DNA of 36,453 bases from assembly GCA_036504895.1 (NCBI GenBank), contig DASXUJ010000021.1, positions 1-36,453 of the forward strand, in the 5' to 3' direction. This stretch comes from Syntrophorhabdaceae bacterium (lineage in GTDB: Bacteria > Desulfobacterota > Syntrophorhabdia > Syntrophorhabdales > Syntrophorhabdaceae). Under the pieces are notes generated by a model. The model was not told the origin of the DNA. It searched no databases and saw only the letters and a program-made list of their open reading frames with translations. This document shows, piece after piece, positions 450-32,151 of the stretch. The position numbers and the translations under genes were made by a program. Every line of letters starts with the position of its first letter. Within the stretch, counting starts at the first letter, position 1.

Positions 450-1724
450 ATGAGCCAGTTTATAGTAAAGAGGCAGTTCAAGAGTCTCCTTGCCACGGGG
501 GTATGCGCCGCGGTGGCTTGTTTTGTGATCACTTTGATCTATTGGCCCCTGTGGGGTGCTGCGGCGAAGGCGATCATCTCCTGGGGAGCGGGGGAAGGAC
601 TCGCGGCGGTGGAGCCGAAAGTGGCGGCCAAATATTTCTCCTGCTTTGCGGAAGCGACTTTCTTTTGGTTTGTGATCAACGCCTGGATATGGCATACCCT
701 CATTTTCGGCCTTTACGGAAAGACTTCCGTCACCGAGCGGCAGCCGGGGGCGGGCATCTTCTATAGCCTCGTGGGCGTCCTCTCCGGATTGGCCGGATTT
801 CTGCTCATCGTCGGTTTCCTCGGCATATGGTGGAAGCCCTTCAGCTTCGGGATTCTCTTCACGCCTCAAACCGCAAGTGACGTGCAGCTCGCGATAGAAG
901 GGTGGGAAGCGAGCAATTTCTTCGCCCTCACCGTCATCATGGTCCAGATCCCCTTTGTCTCTCTCCTCCAGAAATGGCCTTTCGCCGGCAATATAAAGGC
1001 CCCCTGGGATGGGTTCGGCGTATGGACCATGAGTATGCTTGCCGCCGTGATCGTATGGATGGGGGCAATCGTCCCGAGCTTTATGAAGCTCTCCATAGGT
1101 GCCCATGAGATCACCTCTGTGCCCCACGGCTCTTTTCCCACCTTCGTGGCATTCTGCCAGGGCTTCATCTGGTGTCTCCTCATTCCCGCGGAAGGCGGCG
1201 AGACATATCCCATGAAGTTTTTTGCCAAAAAGCAGCCCTGGATGGGCCTTTGCGGCTTTGTCCTCGCCTTGTTGGTAGGCTTCGGCCTCCGTGCCCTTTT
1301 AAGGCCCGTGGTGACTTCCCTCAACCTCCTTCCGGGCGCACCAATAGACCTCGTGATCGCGTCCCTCATTCTGAGCGGCGTCGTCGCCATGCTCATGTGG
1401 CACCATCTGTTCGACGATTTCCCCACGCCCCAGATGGTGCCGAATCAGGCCGCACGGATCCTTTCCAGGTTTTGCATCTGGGTAGTCCTTGGCGCCGTAC
1501 TCGGCGTGGCATGGATCAAGACCTTCAAAATGCTCCCCTTCGGCGCATCGGACCTCGGCCTCGGCTTCCCCACCATGGGAATCCTCGCCGGCCAATTCGC
1601 CTTCCTCATGGCCTTCCTCTATTTCAACACCTTCTTCGACAAGTGGCCGCTCGTGAGAAAGGTCCCGATGACAGTGGTACAGCAACAGCAGCAGCCGAAA
1701 AAGAAGGCGGCGTCGGGAAGGTAG
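450..1724 (+). CDS. Multi-pass membrane protein of unknown function
   Basis: This 424-residue protein is dominated by long hydrophobic segments, roughly nine to eleven predicted membrane passes. The first is near residues 13-40 and the last near 370-390. Short charged loops separate them, and the C-terminus is a soluble tail with a run of five glutamines followed by lysines and a final Ser-Gly-Arg. The ATG at 450 follows a strong ribosome-binding site, GGAGGAGA. No transporter signature motif (MFS, ABC, APC) and no catalytic motif was recognised, and aromatic residues (Trp, Phe) are abundant in the membrane parts. The gene stands alone behind its own promoter, and the following 280 nt are a repeat element, so neighbours give no functional clue. 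It is certainly coding, given the clean frame and the coding-like base composition, but the role is unknown. Confidence 0.85.
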   Translation: MSQFIVKRQFKSLLATGVCAAVACFVITLIYWPLWGAAAKAIISWGAGEGLAAVEPKVAAKYFSCFAEATFFWFVINAWIWHTLIFGLYGKTSVTERQPGAGIFYSLVGVLSGLAGFLLIVGFLGIWWKPFSFGILFTPQTASDVQLAIEGWEASNFFALTVIMVQIPFVSLLQKWPFAGNIKAPWDGFGVWTMSMLAAVIVWMGAIVPSFMKLSIGAHEITSVPHGSFPTFVAFCQGFIWCLLIPAEGGETYPMKFFAKKQPWMGLCGFVLALLVGFGLRALLRPVVTSLNLLPGAPIDLVIASLILSGVVAMLMWHHLFDDFPTPQMVPNQAARILSRFCIWVVLGAVLGVAWIKTFKMLPFGASDLGLGFPTMGILAGQFAFLMAFLYFNTFFDKWPLVRKVPMTVVQQQQQPKKKAASGR

Positions 1725-1730
1725 AGGCGG

Positions 1731-2006
1731 TTAATGCGTGGAAGCGTTCATGCGTGAATGCGGAAAAGCAAACGCATCTAAACTAATGAAAGAAGAGAGA
1801 CTAACGGCTGTGTTGTTGGTCTCTGCCTAGCTCGCACCGGGCACCATTGGGAAGATGGAGAGCGGAATAACAGAATGCGTTGTCATGTCTCTCCCCAGCT
1901 CGCACCGCGAGCGAGAAGGGGAGGCTCGGCGGGCTTTGCCCGTCGAGGGGGCGACGCAAGCCCCTAGAGTTGTGCGACGCAAGCCCCTATAGTTTGCGCA
2001 AGCCCA
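1731..2006 (+). repeat. Double-hairpin repeat, family 1, copy 1 (expanded copy)
   Basis: This is the longest copy of a repeat also found at 2996-3118 (same orientation) and 31557-31735 (opposite orientation). The outer part at 1735-1758 matches copy 2. About 125 nt of extra sequence follow, with a partial stem motif near 1829. The core then has stem 1 (1898-1903 with 1907-1912, loop ACC) and stem 2 (1925-1934 with 1938-1947, loop TTT). Downstream the unit GCGACGCAAGCCCC is repeated at 1951 and 1974, with a decayed third unit at 1996. The element ends within about 15 nt of the next gene's start codon. Confidence 0.8.
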
Positions 2007-2844: not shown

Positions 2845-3155
2845 TTATGATTGTTTCTTGAGTTTCCTGAGAATAGCTTTAGCCAGATAGTCGTTGATCT
2901 CCTGATGTCTCGGAACAGGCTGAACCGCTTTTGAATCGGGATTTTGGTACCAGTCGTGTTTCCCACCATGGCGGACCAATATGCAGCCCATAGAAGGTAA
3001 AAGCGGTTTATGCGTAGAAGCGTTCATGCGTGAATGCGTGATGTAGCTCGCACCGCGAGCGAGAAGGGGAGGCTCGGCGGGCTTTTGCCCGTCGAGGGGG
3101 CGACGCAAGCCCCAATAATGGCAAGAAGCTCCCTTACCACATCGGCGCGCTTCAC
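2845..3155 (-). pseudogene. hicA: HicA-type mRNA interferase toxin, split by a repeat insertion
   Basis: HicA toxins are RNA-binding ribonucleases of about 60 residues. The N-terminus is read from GTG at 3155 as MKRADVVRELLAI, matching the family start MKR-x-D-L-I-x-x-L. The C-terminus is read in another frame at about 2991-2845, with GCILVRHGGKHDWY carrying the catalytic histidine region, then PVPRHQEINDYLAK. Between the two halves lies a family-1 repeat of about 125 bp. Reading on from the N-terminus hits TGA at 3024-3026. The GTG start overlaps the hicB stop by 4 nt (GTGA), the usual translationally coupled layout. Joined without the insert, the two pieces give a protein of normal length. 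The toxin is therefore almost certainly inactive. Confidence 0.85.
2996..3118 (+). repeat. Double-hairpin repeat, family 1, copy 2 (inside hicA)
   Basis: This copy has stem 1 at 3046-3051 with 3055-3060 (loop ACC) and stem 2 at 3073-3082 with 3087-3096 (loop TTTT), then GCGACGCAAGCCCC at 3100-3113. It lies in the same orientation as copy 1 and is nearly identical over the hairpin core and the GCGTTCATGCGTGAATGCG segment. Its ends fall inside the hicA reading frame, so the boundaries are known to within a few bases from where HicA homology stops and resumes. Confidence 0.85.
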
Positions 3156-3343
3156 GCTACCTGCAGCTCCCCTAGTTTCCGGATAGCCGGAATCTCGCCG
3201 CTGGTCATGTCTTTGTGAAGTTCAATGAGGTTCTCCTTAAGCTCATCCAAACTCATGCCTTGCGTCATGTACTCGGGATATTCTTCGATATAGCCCAGCC
3301 AATACTCTCCGTCCTGCCAATATACATATCGAATATTATACAT
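3152..3343 (-). CDS. hicB: HicB-family antitoxin
   Basis: This 63-residue protein starts MYNIRYVYWQDGEYWLGYIEEYPEY and continues with GMSLDELKENLIELH, the characteristic partial RNase-H-like fold of the HicB N-terminal domain (strand, W-x-G-Y, then S-L-E-E-L-x-x-N-L). Short HicB proteins of this size lack a C-terminal DNA-binding domain and neutralise HicA by direct binding. The start is supported by a strong ribosome-binding site (GAGGAGGAG) just upstream. It is the first gene of a hicB-hicA pair and its stop overlaps the hicA start by 4 nt. Because hicA is disrupted, this antitoxin is probably an orphan now. The frame itself appears intact. Confidence 0.85.
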   Translation of the reverse strand: MYNIRYVYWQDGEYWLGYIEEYPEYMTQGMSLDELKENLIELHKDMTSGEIPAIRKLGELQVA

Positions 3344-20755: not shown

Positions 20756-21447
20756 TATTTATTAAGTGAAAATGCCTCATTTTGGCCTCTGCATATATAC
20801 GGAAATTTAGAAATCGGACGCGCAATATCGATTGAAATGACGAAGCACGAGCGTCCCTCTGCCATCCTATATTTCTATGGGGGCGCGCGCATGCCGGCAA
20901 CGCCGTCACCGGAGCCTTCCGCTGCAGGGTCCCCCAGCCCCTACGCAAGTCGCTCCAGAAGTAGCCCCCTTAAGCCCACCCGTCAGGGCGAGTGAAGTTG
21001 TTTCAAAACTTTCTCCAAAACCCGAACCAGTGGCGGTTTATCCAACGAAAGATATGCAGCGTTGCCCTACTATGAGGATGAATTGCCTATTATAAACAGA
21101 CGAAAAGAGGGGAGCAAAGACCCCATTTAAATAATGATGCCGTCGTAATGCCCTTATATGATTGAAAAGTGCCTCGAATTTAGATGAAAGCACTCGGTTT
21201 TACTGGTGGCTCCGGCATTGATGTGCGGCATACCTGATTTCTCGTGACATTCGACAGTATAAGCGAACACATCATGGTTGACCTTTCATAAAGTATGGAG
21301 CATAATAGATTTCGATTGGGAGACAAGAAACCTCCCGGCAGTAAGCCCAGCCGATAAGAGAAGAGAGTTCTCTCCCGCTCTTTTGAATGTTCAGAATTTA
21401 ATAATTCGATCGACCTACTTGACCGCCTTAAGGAGAAGAGGAATAAG
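20756..21447. other. Long intergenic region with a family-2 repeat
   Basis: 20885-21005 is a copy of the family-2 repeat, listed separately. The remaining 440 nt have no supported gene. A short hairpin (GGGAG at about 21320 with CTCCC) lies upstream of the next gene, but it does not match a known riboswitch that could be recognised here. Confidence 0.5.
20885..21005 (+). repeat. Family-2 intergenic repeat, copy C
   Basis: The sequence is very similar to 23657-23775 in the same orientation, including GCCGTCACCGG, CCTTCCGCTGCAGG and AGCCCCCTTAAGCCCACC. It lacks the left part of copy A. Confidence 0.8.
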
Positions 21448-23400
21448 ATGACAAAGAAATACACTCATTCTGAAAGATTCAGAGGATTCAGAGGATTTTA
21501 TAAATATGGGACCAATCTGACCTTGCCTGCGCTTTTCGTTGTGCTGGTTTTATCAGTGTTCGCTCATCAATGTTATGGTTTCTCAATGGTCGCCTCCCCC
21601 AGGATTTCCGCCTCCCCCGCCTCTCTCAACTTCGGGAATGTAAAATCCGGCGCCACATCTTCAGTTAAAACGATCACGGTGAAAAACACGGGCACCTCGG
21701 ACCTTGTGATAGGAAGCATTGACATCACAGGGACCAACGCCTCCGAATTCAGCCAAACAAACGATTGCACAATGATTACGGCAGGTGCTTCATGCGTCGT
21801 CAGCGGAACATTTGCGCCCACAACCCCCTTTGGAAAAAAGAGTGCGGTAGTGAGTATTATCTCTAACGACCCCGTGAAGCCGAATTTAAATGTGAAGGTC
21901 TCGGGTAGCGCTCCTCCTCCCAGGGTTTCTGCCTCCCCTGTGTCCCTCAGTTTCGGTAGTGTAAGACCTGGAGCCACATCTTCACTTAAGACGATCACGG
22001 TGAAAAACACGGGCACCTCCGATCTTGTGATAGGAAGCATCGACATCACAGGGACCAACGCCTCCGAATTCAGCCAAACAAACAATTGCACGAACATTAC
22101 GGCAGGTGCTTCATGCGTCGTCAGCGGAACATTTGCGCCCACACCTCCCTCCGGCAATAAGAGCGCAATAGTGAGTATTACCTCTAACGACCCTGCGAAG
22201 CTCACCGTAAACGTGAAGCTTTCGGGAACTACTGCAGTGGTCCCCAGGGACGCGGGGGGCGTATTACTGACGAGCGGTCGGTTCGGAGCTCTCATGGTCG
22301 GCGGCAGGGCCGGTGAGATGCTTCTCCCTATGGTTGACCGGGATGGGTCGGGCAACGCCACAAGGATAACCTGAGCACTGTATATGAATAATGATACCGG
22401 CAACAGCGCCGTGGTGTACCTTGGCGAAGACGGCAGGCCGACGAAGACCGTCATGGGCGACTTCATCCTGCTCTTTTCCAACTGGAGCGCGAATGGCACA
22501 ACCGTTAATATTGCAAAAATCTACACACCCACCAATTACATTGAGGTGTTCAAGGGGGTGAATGTAGCCACGAACATCGCTGCAAATAACGCCAATCGCG
22601 AAGTTTCGTCATACGTTGCGCCGATGACCTGTTTACCGGTATGCGGCAATGACACTCAAACTCTGGCGGAGCTCCTCAAGTTGTCCGGGTTGCTCATATC
22701 GGACGGTCTTTGCGTGGTCGCCATTCCGGCTTCTCTTGCGACAATGGCCCTTCCCTGCGCCGGGGCAGTCGTGGCCACGGCATCGTTCCTGATGGGCGAT
22801 GAAGCATGGCTTGGAATTCAAGGGATGGATGCTGGTTTTCTGGCTATGGATGCCGCTGAATGCCTTGGTGCAAACGCGTTGTCCTGCGTGTCACTCTTCT
22901 CGGGTGTGGGCTCGCAGATATTAGATGTATATGGAAAAGAACTGGATGACAACAGCACTCTCGTGGGTGTAGCCTTCGCTGCGCTCACAGATCCAAACCG
23001 ACCTGGCGGTGTGGTCCAGCCGGGAGGTGGACTCCCCGTGGTACCATCAGGCGAATATGAGTGCACTCCGGGTGGCGCAATGCATTATGCGCCATGCCTC
23101 GTCGGCGGCGTCAGAGAGTGCCGGAGCGACTACACATGGAGCCCCTGTGCGCCTACGCCTGTGTGTGGAAACGGGAGATGCGAGAGCGGAGAAACGTCGT
23201 TCAACTGCCCAGGTGATTGCGCCAACCGCACATGCCCCAATAGAGACAGCACCTGTTGCACGATGAGCGGCGGCAGCCAGATCCAGGTGATCAAAGTTCC
23301 CACAAGTTGCAGGCACTGCCCCAACGACAACACGACATATGCAGGCTACGGAGAGAATGGTTACTATGTGTGCGATTGCGACGATTGTAGAAGCTGGTAA
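21448..23400 (+). pseudogene. Surface protein with tandem Ig-like repeats, interrupted by TGA
   Basis: A 308-residue frame (21448-22374) and a 338-residue frame (22384-23400) lie in the same reading phase, separated only by TGA at 22372-22374 and three codons. The first part has a signal-like hydrophobic segment and two 107-residue ASPM/SPD-2/Hydin-type Ig repeats (SASPASLNFGNV, then NTGTSDLVIGSIDITGTNAS). The second continues with a beta-rich segment, two hydrophobic patches and a Cys-rich tail with CGNGRCESGETSFNCPGDC, a motif of secreted proteins. The second frame has no ribosome-binding site, so this is most simply one gene with a nonsense mutation. Two separate genes, or recoding of TGA, are less likely. 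AAGGAGAAGAGG precedes ATG 21448. Confidence 0.65.
21598..22239 (+). repeat. Two direct 321-bp coding repeats
   Basis: 21598-21918 and 21919-22239 encode successive Ig-like domains. From about 21679 and 22000 onward the two copies are almost identical at the DNA level, including third codon positions, which points to recent duplication or gene conversion. Confidence 0.85.
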
Positions 23401-23493
23401 GATTAGGGTCGCGGATGGAGAGGTCCATAACCACATCACTACTGCGGCCTAACCTTTAGATTTGCGAAAGGGCGAGATTGTTGGGGGTAGGAC

Positions 23494-23775
23494 GGCTGGG
23501 CTTAAGGGGGCTACTCCTTCAGCTCCGGCTGCTTAAGGGACTGGACCCAAGGCGTTCCCAGGCCCCTCGCGCTCAGCGCGCAGTTTATTATTAACGTGTG
23601 GCACGAGGGTTGTTCGCGAACCGATTGGTTCTGCCGGGCCTGATCCACCTATCCGAACGCGCGTGCCGGCTTGCCGTCACCGGAACCTTCCGCTGCAGGC
23701 TTCCCCAGCCCCTACGCAGTCGCTCCAGAAGCAGCCCCCTTAAGCCCACCCGCCAGGGCGAGTTAAGGTGTTTTC
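23494..23775 (+). repeat. Family-2 repeat, copy A, with terminal inverted repeats
   Basis: GGCTGGGCTTAAGGGGGCT at 23494-23512 (arm extends to 23515) pairs with 23730-23750 with two mismatches, giving a unit of about 257 bp like a small non-autonomous element. Its middle (about 23520-23695) is homologous to the inverse complement of 25590-25780, and its right part to copy C. It fills the 506-nt gap between the broken surface-protein gene and the RsbW-GNAT gene; no gene is seen there. Confidence 0.8.
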
Positions 23776-23906
23776 AGGCGGTAATGATCATACCCCGCAC
23801 AAAGAATTCGTTCGACAGAAGAATAAAGGAAACACCTAGTTGACGAGCGTGACAAGCTCGGCTGAGACTGGGGGTAATTCACGTTGGTCAACTACCGACG
23901 TGTTTT

Positions 23907-25427
23907 CTAAGTCTCTATGGCTGTCCCCGATTTCCCGCCGATGCGGTCATTAACGTACGCGACTATTTCCTTTGCCATAGGGGAATGCAATTTTATCCTG
24001 GAAGGATCGATAATCAGGTTATTCAGGTATTGGAGTATCAGCGTGTCTTCGAAGTGAAGGCAAGGGATGATCCCGCCCATGAAGAATCCCAGTTTTTCTA
24101 TCTCTTCACACATGAGAATCGTGGCCGGGTCCCCCAAATCCAGGAAGAGAGTAAAATGATCGATTCTTTTGGCACAGAGGTCTCTCAGGTGGTCTCGAAG
24201 GACTCTTATGACATCCTCGCCGTGTTGGCGAATCACGATCTCCGCACTATTTATTTCGGAATACACCTTTACTTCCATCACCGACAGGTCTGCCATGGGA
24301 ACTATTTTGGATGATGTGTGGAAATTCCTGGTCAGGCCGAGATTCGAGTATATCCGGCGCAAGACGGGCTCGTGATGGGAAGGGAGGAACACCGATGTGA
24401 CCGGGAGCTCAAGGACGGGTTGAAAACAATATACCAGGCTCTCCCGCTGGGAGAGTTGCTCCTGGATCCCCTTGAACGCTATATCAGCCGGAGCGTAACC
24501 GAGAACCACGCCGCAGTCTTTATAGCCGGTTTTCTCCGTCATTTTCTGGGTCGCACTGTGGACCGTGACCGACCTCCCGTAAAGAGCCCTGATACCCATG
24601 TTTTTGGCTGTGTCATTAAGAAGTCTTTGCATTCCCGTAAAGATATCTTTGCCTCTGAAGCTTGGTTTCACTGCACCTTTTCCCGTCTCAGCCACGATAT
24701 CGTCACGTTTTTCCCTGGTCATGGCCAGGTGTCCGACAATTTCTCCTTCTTCAGATACTGCGACCACCGATGTGATGAGACCTTCCTGATTATACTCGGC
24801 AAGCCTTTCCGGGTAGTACATCACGTCCGACAGGTATGAATATCCGTATGTCCGATAGAAGAGCCTGGATACTTCCAGTGCTTCGGACGACTTCATCAGC
24901 CTCAACTCGACTGAAAGGGACAAGTCAGGCACAGCCTTGTCGGCGATTGGTTTCAGAGACGGGGGAGGCTCCGGATACTCGCCCAGCTCCACGACGCTCC
25001 TGGCCGGAAGGCGTTTGATGAGGTGCAGTTCTTTCCCTCCCTTCCCCAGGTTACAGAGAAACACCTCGTCAACACATTTCGCCATAATAAAAGATCCGAG
25101 GCCTTTCGAAAGTATCTCCTCAACGTCCGTGGGCGCTTCGTATTCGGGGAGGCGGCTAAGATCGTAAGGCAAGCCCATGTCTTTAACTATGATCTCCATA
25201 CCCCCTGCCGACGGCTCGAAGATAATCTGAAATGATTGCTCTGTCGACTCGAAAGCATGCTCGATTACATTTGTAACAGCCTCCTCGAGGGCCAGAACGA
25301 TCATTTCCTGATCATTGCTGCCGAATCCTGTTTCCCTTGCGAACTCTCTTGCGAAAGCCTGGATTGCAGGCAAATATGATAGTTCACTCGTGACGGTAAG
25401 ACTCGAGCTTCCGTGTATCATGCCCAT
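23907..25427 (-). CDS. RsbW-like ATPase/GNAT acetyltransferase fusion
   Basis: This 506-residue protein has three parts. Residues 1-150 form a GHKL ATPase of the anti-sigma/RsbW type, with the N-box LALEEAVTNVIEHAF near 45-59 and the G-box GLGSFIMAK near 108-116. Residues 185-330 resemble a GNAT acetyltransferase (VVAVSEEGEIVGHLAM, then VKPSFRGKDIFTGM as the acetyl-CoA loop). Residues 330-506 form an alpha/beta domain ending LGFFMGGIIPCLHFEDTLILQYL, GNAT-like in style. It could link partner-switching phosphorylation to acetylation, but the partners are unknown. No anti-anti-sigma gene is adjacent. The ATG at 25427 follows GGAGGGATGGGC-like purines. It stands alone, bracketed by inverted copies of the family-2 repeat. 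Confidence 0.8.
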   Translation of the reverse strand: MGMIHGSSSLTVTSELSYLPAIQAFAREFARETGFGSNDQEMIVLALEEAVTNVIEHAFESTEQSFQIIFEPSAGGMEIIVKDMGLPYDLSRLPEYEAPTDVEEILSKGLGSFIMAKCVDEVFLCNLGKGGKELHLIKRLPARSVVELGEYPEPPPSLKPIADKAVPDLSLSVELRLMKSSEALEVSRLFYRTYGYSYLSDVMYYPERLAEYNQEGLITSVVAVSEEGEIVGHLAMTREKRDDIVAETGKGAVKPSFRGKDIFTGMQRLLNDTAKNMGIRALYGRSVTVHSATQKMTEKTGYKDCGVVLGYAPADIAFKGIQEQLSQRESLVYCFQPVLELPVTSVFLPSHHEPVLRRIYSNLGLTRNFHTSSKIVPMADLSVMEVKVYSEINSAEIVIRQHGEDVIRVLRDHLRDLCAKRIDHFTLFLDLGDPATILMCEEIEKLGFFMGGIIPCLHFEDTLILQYLNNLIIDPSRIKLHSPMAKEIVAYVNDRIGGKSGTAIET

Positions 25428-25589
25428 CCCTCCTGTTCTGTGTGAGTCTATTATGCTTCAATCCCTGCTGGTTTTCAAGTTGAAACATCGTGCAATGCGA
25501 GAGAAGTAGGGAGTAGGGGGACGCTCTGGAAATGTTGACCTTTGAGACATAAGATGCCCATCATGGCGATCATACTTGATTTCCTCCCG

Positions 25590-25780
25590 CAATTGCAGGG
25601 TTCCGGTGACGGCGTAGCCGGCACGCGCGCCGGATAGTTGGATGAGACCCCTCCAAACCAACTGGTTTTCGGACGACCACTATTCCTTACCTCAAAAACA
25701 AACTTCGCACTGAGCGCGAGGAGACCGGGAGCGTCTTGGGTCCAGACCCGGAGCAGCCGGAGCGGAAGGAATAATCCCCG
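25590..25780 (-). repeat. Family-2 repeat, copy B (inverted)
   Basis: The inverse complement aligns with 23520-23695 over about 180 bp, with shared blocks CTCCGGCTGCT, CTGGACCCAAG, CTCGCGCTCAG, GCGCGTGCCGGC and GCCGTCACCGGAACC. Together with copy A it forms long inverted repeats around the RsbW-GNAT gene. The rest of the 540-nt gap upstream of that gene shows no supported coding sequence. Confidence 0.8.
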
Positions 25781-31556: not shown

Positions 31557-31735
31557 TGCTGCTATTGACGGGGCTCACGTCGCACAATTGATTGGGGCTC
31601 AGGTCGCACAATCTATTGGGGCTCACGTCGCCCCCTCGGTCGGCAAAAGCCGACCGAGCCTCCCCCCGCTTAAGGCGCCTACTGTTGGTCTCGCCCGCGG
31701 TGCGGGCTACATCACGCGGGAAAGCTGGGATTATT
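31557..31735 (-). repeat. Double-hairpin repeat, family 1, copy 3 (inverted)
   Basis: Read on the minus strand, this has the same order as copies 1 and 2. Stem 1 is GCCCGC-ACC-GCGGGC (31693-31707) and stem 2 is 31635-31644/31649-31658 with loop TTTT. The tail is three 24-bp units starting at 31570, 31594 and 31618. The stems differ from the other copies at paired positions while pairing is kept. Confidence 0.8.
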
Positions 31736-31900
31736 ATGGTCGCGGTGACTTGCGCTTGATCTCACCGGGACGAGGATACTTTTTTTCGCTCTTTTGGAGG
31801 ATTCACGGCTATGACTGGGGCTTGCTGGTGTGCATCTTCTTATAACATCATGTATTAGGTCTCTGGTTTTTCTTCCCTGCTAACTTATCGATTGCGCTTC

Positions 31901-32102
31901 ACGGGGACGGGAGGGCTCTATATTCCCTGCGCCTTGCGAGCACCGTTGGGTTTACCCACTCGGTGAGGAGAAACGTTCCGAAGGACAGCCACCCATGTTT
32001 GAGGAGGCACGACGAGTTGGGTGGCTGAGTGCCGGACGAGCCGTCTTTTAGTGGGTAACGGGCGCAGCCGAAGCAGGGAATATAGAGCCCTCCCGTCCCC
32101 GT
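31901..32102. mobile_element. 202-bp element with perfect 30-bp terminal inverted repeats
   Basis: The arms 31901-31930 and 32073-32102 are exact inverse complements. Inside, TTACCCACT (31952-31960) pairs with 32050-32058, and CAGCCACCC (31986-31994) pairs with 32019-32027. An alternative local hairpin, CACCG (31941-31945) with CGGTG (31961-31965), is also possible. The element could be a miniature transposable element or the gene of a highly structured RNA. No reading frame in it is protein-like, and no target-site duplication was recognised. Confidence 0.75.
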
Positions 32103-32151
32103 GGTTCCCAAACAATCTTGTCATGCAGTTGGTGGCCGAACGCCCGCTCCT

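What the first reader, a model, noticed from the sequence alone, without database searches (positions are those of the whole stretch)
2845..3343. A family-1 repeat splits the hicA toxin and leaves an orphan antitoxin
The HicA N-terminus is read from GTG 3155 and its C-terminus resumes in another frame at about 2991. The repeat lies between them, and the uninterrupted sequence would give a normal-length HicA. This dates the repeat as able to insert into genes and gives nearly exact element boundaries. Insertion into a toxin gene may have been tolerated because it disarms the module.
Basis: partly seen in the sequence, partly recalled or inferred. Interest (0 to 1): 0.7.

Follow-up and report, generated by a model that had tools for sequence, protein, structure and literature searches.

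The report
Hairpin repeat inserted in hicA toxin
In this bacterium one copy of a common, protein-less hairpin repeat has landed inside the toxin gene of a small toxin-antitoxin pair, cutting off the toxin's first helix and leaving the antitoxin intact; this is an ordinary kind of event, but the repeat family is widespread and seems undescribed.

Summary
On the minus strand an intact hicB (3152-3343) overlaps the GTG start of hicA (3155-3153). hicA codons 1-12 (3155-3120) and 13-60 (2991-2845) are separated by a 126-nt repeat (2992-3117), with an "AT" on both sides. Uninterrupted hicA relatives behind the same type of HicB align across 12|13 with no gap or overlap, which fixes the site to within 2 nt and makes a misassembly unlikely. 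The insert shifts the frame. Two refinements. First, the repeat supplies an ATG (3027) overlapping the stop of the N-terminal frame (ATGA), giving a 60-aa chimera that keeps Gly22/His24 but loses helix 1 (AlphaFold pLDDT 49 there, 91 in an intact relative): the toxin is probably dead, not proven. Second, of 85 copies scored in the genome nearly all are intergenic; hicA is the only verified genic insertion. The repeat is a three-hairpin element, 87 copies here, found in related families of the order and patchily in Nitrospirae, Syntrophus and other MAGs. It is not in Rfam, has no terminal inverted repeats, and neither neighbourhood nor co-occurrence links it to a Y1/RAYT transposase. Its mobiliser is unknown.

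The parts
3152..3343 (-). hicB antitoxin gene, intact, 63 aa; stop overlaps the hicA start
3120..3155 (-). hicA codons 1-12 (GTG start; VKRADVVRELLA)
   Evidence: register with intact relatives
2992..3117 (+). inserted repeat copy, 126 nt, antisense to hicA; 'AT' on both sides at 2990-2991 and 3118-3119
2993..3038 (+). 5' module of the repeat, subfamily shared with 1717-1762 and contig C3
3046..3060 (+). hairpin 1 (GCTCGC-ACC-GCGAGC)
3073..3096 (+). hairpin 2 (CTCGGCGGGC-TTTT-GCCCGTCGAG), with two-sided changes across copies
3097..3113 (+). hairpin 3 (GGGGC-GACGCAA-GCCCC)
2845..2991 (-). hicA from codon 13 to the stop (MGCILVRHGGKHDWY...)
3024..3155 (-). frame from the hicA GTG into the repeat, 43 aa, ending at TGA 3026-3024
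2845..3027 (-). 60-aa chimeric frame from the repeat's ATG 3027 into hicA; overlaps the previous stop (ATGA); no Shine-Dalgarno seen
1717..1972 (+). second copy of the same subfamily (5' module 1717-1762; hairpins 1887-1972)
31610..31718 (-). third copy of the family in the window, with the extra hairpin

Best explanation
A non-autonomous interspersed hairpin repeat (126 nt, no gene of its own, no terminal inverted repeats) inserted antisense between codons 12 and 13 of hicA in a hicB-hicA operon. Shown: intact hicB, hicA split in exact register, frameshift, and membership of the insert in a multicopy repeat family. Inferred: the insertion removes helix 1 and so inactivates the toxin; losing a toxin whose antitoxin stays is tolerated, so this allele survived where most other insertions into genes would have been purged. 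The enzyme that moves the repeat is unknown.
For: Register of the two pieces against intact relatives; 57 to 87 copies of the insert elsewhere in the genome, 82 of 85 of them intergenic; hicB frame and ribosome-binding site intact; helix 1 predicted in an intact relative (pLDDT 91.3, residues 3-13) and largely lost in the chimera (residues 1-10 pLDDT 49); Leu10 of helix 1 is a core residue in B. pseudomallei HicA (PMC3969222).
Against: No uninterrupted DNA of this locus was found, even in the same genus. Toxicity was not measured, and the repeat supplies a coupled ATG. The structure models rest on six sequences. Both hicA pieces are free of further damage, so the insertion is either recent or the remnant is still used.
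Confidence: 0.85

Rival explanations
1. The insertion re-started rather than killed hicA: ribosomes leaving the 43-aa frame re-initiate at the overlapping ATG 3027 and make a 60-aa HicA with a new N-terminus that still needs HicB.
For: ATGA overlap at 3027-3024, the same length as an intact HicA, Gly22 and His24 positions kept; frame otherwise undamaged.
Against: No Shine-Dalgarno before ATG 3027; the new residues MNASTHKPLLPS contain two prolines and helix 1 is not predicted with confidence.
Confidence: 0.1
2. The repeat is a REP/BIME element moved by a RAYT (Y1) transposase.
For: Small, palindromic, intergenic and multicopy; GTAG precedes hairpin 1 in 37 of 63 copies scored in this genome; seven Y1 genes in the genome.
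Against: None of the seven Y1 genes has a repeat nearby, and only one Y1 gene was seen in the 120 motif-selected loci. G005 has at least 38 copies and G039 at least 15, with no Y1 match. The GTAG tag is nearly absent outside this genome. The hairpins are in direct, not inverted, order.
Confidence: 0.15
3. Assembly artefact: the two flanks were joined wrongly at a repeat.
For: Several copies lie at contig ends (C66, C8), so repeats do break this assembly.
Against: The two flanks are two pieces of one gene in exact register, which a wrong join between different loci would not give.
Confidence: 0.02

Closest known systems
HicAB type II toxin-antitoxin systems (HicA, PF07927)
   Same: HicA fold positions Gly22 and His24, hicB overlapping hicA, two-gene operon
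   Different: Antitoxin gene first; toxin gene split by a repeat; this HicB is short and matches Pfam only below threshold
REP/BIME elements with RAYT transposases (PMC2817692, PMC3733652)
   Same: Multicopy, hairpin-forming, mostly intergenic, rarely inside genes
   Different: Three direct-order hairpins over 126 nt or more instead of a 20-40 nt palindrome; GTAG tag not conserved; no Y1 link in neighbourhood or co-occurrence
CGTC-tagged REPs and Rickettsia RPEs (PMC3733652)
   Same: Palindromic repeats without a dedicated transposase, sometimes inside genes
   Different: CGTC does not adjoin a stem here; the hicA insert frameshifts instead of adding residues in frame
MITEs
   Same: Size, lack of coding capacity, possible structured transcript
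   Different: No terminal inverted repeats in the hicA copy; 2-nt AT on both sides at most

Membership tests
HicAB toxin-antitoxin (interrupted member) | HicA domain with Gly22/His24 positions | tested here: met
   PMC3969222
HicAB toxin-antitoxin (interrupted member) | adjacent HicB-like antitoxin | tested here: met
   Pfam alone is sub-threshold
HicAB toxin-antitoxin (interrupted member) | active toxin neutralised by HicB | not testable with these tools
   gene split; needs expression
REP/RAYT | 20-40 nt palindrome tagged GTAG | tested here: not met
   126-nt three-hairpin unit; GTAG in 37 of 63 own copies scored and in 1 of about 55 elsewhere
REP/RAYT | Y1 transposase gene flanked by the repeat | tested here: not met
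CGTC REP | CGTC next to an 8-9 bp stem | tested here: not met
   CGTC of the antisense strand lies in the loop of hairpin 3 (sequence)
MITE | terminal inverted repeats | tested here: not met
   ends AGAAGGTAAAAG... and, reversed, TATTGGGGCTTG...
MITE | target duplication of fixed length | tested here: inconclusive
   AT on both sides in hicA; no empty site found; most other copies show no detectable duplication
Rfam RNA family | match to a curated model | tested here: not met
   no match to the repeat

The most novel reading that the evidence does not exclude
The repeat is a mobile, structured, protein-less element that spreads within and between phyla by a route involving neither Y1/RAYT transposases nor terminal inverted repeats; in hicA it also installed a coupled start codon that swaps the toxin's first 12 residues.
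Probability: 0.12. Interest if true: 0.65.

Novelty: new member of a known kind. Interest (0 to 1): 0.32.

Why it matters
The hicA copy gives a near-exact edge for a repeat family that otherwise sits in intergenic DNA that does not align between species, and shows that it can enter a gene. The family is common in this order and occurs in Nitrospirae and other subsurface MAGs, yet it is not in Rfam, its core motif was not found in a relevant paper, and its mobiliser is unknown. As a toxin knock-out it is an ordinary case of toxin-antitoxin decay.

Tried and rejected
(1) Y1/RAYT mobiliser: seven Y1 genes found, none near the repeat; co-occurrence fails. (2) Rfam at gathering and permissive thresholds: nothing on the repeat. 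(3) Phage or plasmid carriage: no match. (4) Empty site by DNA synteny: same-genus and same-family genomes share almost no alignable DNA around hicBA except the repeats. (5) Long flanking duplications as the insertion signature: real in a handful of copies (L172, L177, L209, L087, L082) but absent in most of 156 solitary copies and partly at tRNA or gene ends. (6) Literature: only an unrelated paper holds the core motif; none couples 'interspersed repeat' with Syntrophorhabdus.

Full report
Observation. The minus strand of 2845-3343 was read in all frames. hicB (3152-3343, 63 aa) is intact, has a strong ribosome-binding site, and its stop codon overlaps the GTG at 3155. From that GTG the frame reads VKRADVVRELLA, then runs into unrelated sequence and ends at TGA 3026-3024. 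The HicA domain resumes at 2991 (MGCILVRHGGKHDWY...), Pfam HicA_toxin E 1.1e-10.

Site. HicB matches were found in 11 of 99 genomes searched, this genome included, and several of these HicBs lie directly upstream of an intact hicA in the same order. Their HicAs (MKRKELIKKITS|VGCVLVRHG...) align with the two window pieces with no gap or overlap: piece 1 ends at residue 12 and piece 2 starts at residue 13. The pieces were compared separately and not joined. The 128 nt between codons 12 and 13 consist of a 126-nt repeat (2992-3117) and one of two AT dinucleotides. A 2-nt match has a chance of about 1/16, so no target duplication is claimed. A misassembly would not place two pieces of one gene in exact register.

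What is left of the toxin. The insert shifts the frame. The repeat supplies an ATG at 3027 that overlaps the TGA of the N-terminal frame (ATGA). From it a 60-aa frame reads MNASTHKPLLPS followed by HicA from codon 13. It keeps the positions of Gly22 and His24, which are needed for toxicity in B. pseudomallei HicA, where the helix-1 residue Leu10 lies in the hydrophobic core (PMC3969222). AlphaFold on six sequences gives an intact relative mean pLDDT 91.3 with a helix at 3-13; it gives the chimera 69.5, with residues 1-10 at 49 and only 9-12 helical. There is no Shine-Dalgarno before ATG 3027. Inactivation is therefore likely but not shown. The genome has four other HicA-family matches but no second match to this HicB, so 'orphan' holds for this HicB type.

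The repeat. blastn finds 57 matches in the 4.35-Mb genome and a covariance model 87. The core is three hairpins in direct order; hairpin 2 has changes on both sides at several pairs, hairpin 1 at one pair, and hairpin 3 is nearly invariant. An extra hairpin (CCAACAGTAGGCGCC...) occurs in some copies after hairpin 1 or after hairpin 2. The 5' part varies between subfamilies; the hicA copy belongs to one shared with window 1717-1964 and contig C3. After GAGCCCC the sequence follows a weak NNTAATNG and then becomes random. Of 85 copies scored, 82 are intergenic with no fixed orientation to neighbours, and the other three look like gene-start or edge effects. The hicA copy counts as intergenic in that tally because the gene is broken; it is the only verified insertion into a gene, though other split genes could be missed without homologues.

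Distribution. The repeat was found in 33 of 60 genomes of the relatives search, this genome included, all in the same order. In a draw of 118 genomes across the phylum only three had it: this one, a family member, and a single copy elsewhere. The core motif GAGGGGGCGACGYRAGCCCC also occurs in MAGs named Nitrospirae, Syntrophus, Deltaproteobacteria, Acidobacteria and Bdellovibrionales, mostly with the same hairpin context. It is absent from viral contigs, and the repeat has no match in the phage and plasmid collections. Binning errors in MAGs may inflate the spread.

Mobiliser. REPs are held to be moved by RAYT (Y1) transposases whose genes REPs flank (PMC2817692). Here the seven Y1 genes have no repeat nearby. 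G005 (at least 38 copies) and G039 (at least 15) have no Y1 match. The GTAG tag is not conserved outside this genome. CGTC REPs are described as lacking a dedicated transposase (PMC3733652), the nearest parallel, but CGTC does not adjoin a stem here. The hicA copy has no terminal inverted repeats. Intragenic REPs are known and are described as encoding added residues (PMC3733652); this insert frameshifts.

Verdict. The finding is real and its coordinates are good. As biology it is an ordinary repeat insertion into a dispensable toxin gene, with the refinement of a repeat-supplied start codon. The more interesting object is the repeat family, whose means of movement is unknown.

Noticed in passing
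L172, L177, L209, L087, L082, around repeat copies: A few copies are flanked by long direct duplications of host sequence (29 to about 170 nt; tRNA regions, the 3' ends of rplL and hpt), the right copy starting just after the repeat's 3' end.
   Followed up: partly
window 31887-32116: A 44-nt inverted repeat pair 142 nt apart (86% complementary), next to another copy of the repeat.
   Followed up: no
genomes G002 and G020: Matches at identical contig coordinates (G002:C89/G020:C67, C146/C104, C58/C43), so one of the two MAGs probably holds the other's contigs.
   Followed up: no
window 1711-1724: The last codons and stop of the gene 450-1724 resemble the repeat's 5' module in copy C3, so the repeat may supply the gene's end.
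   Followed up: no
window 20885-25779: A second dispersed repeat family with copies near 20.9, 23.5-23.7 and 25.6-25.8 kb in both orientations.
   Followed up: no
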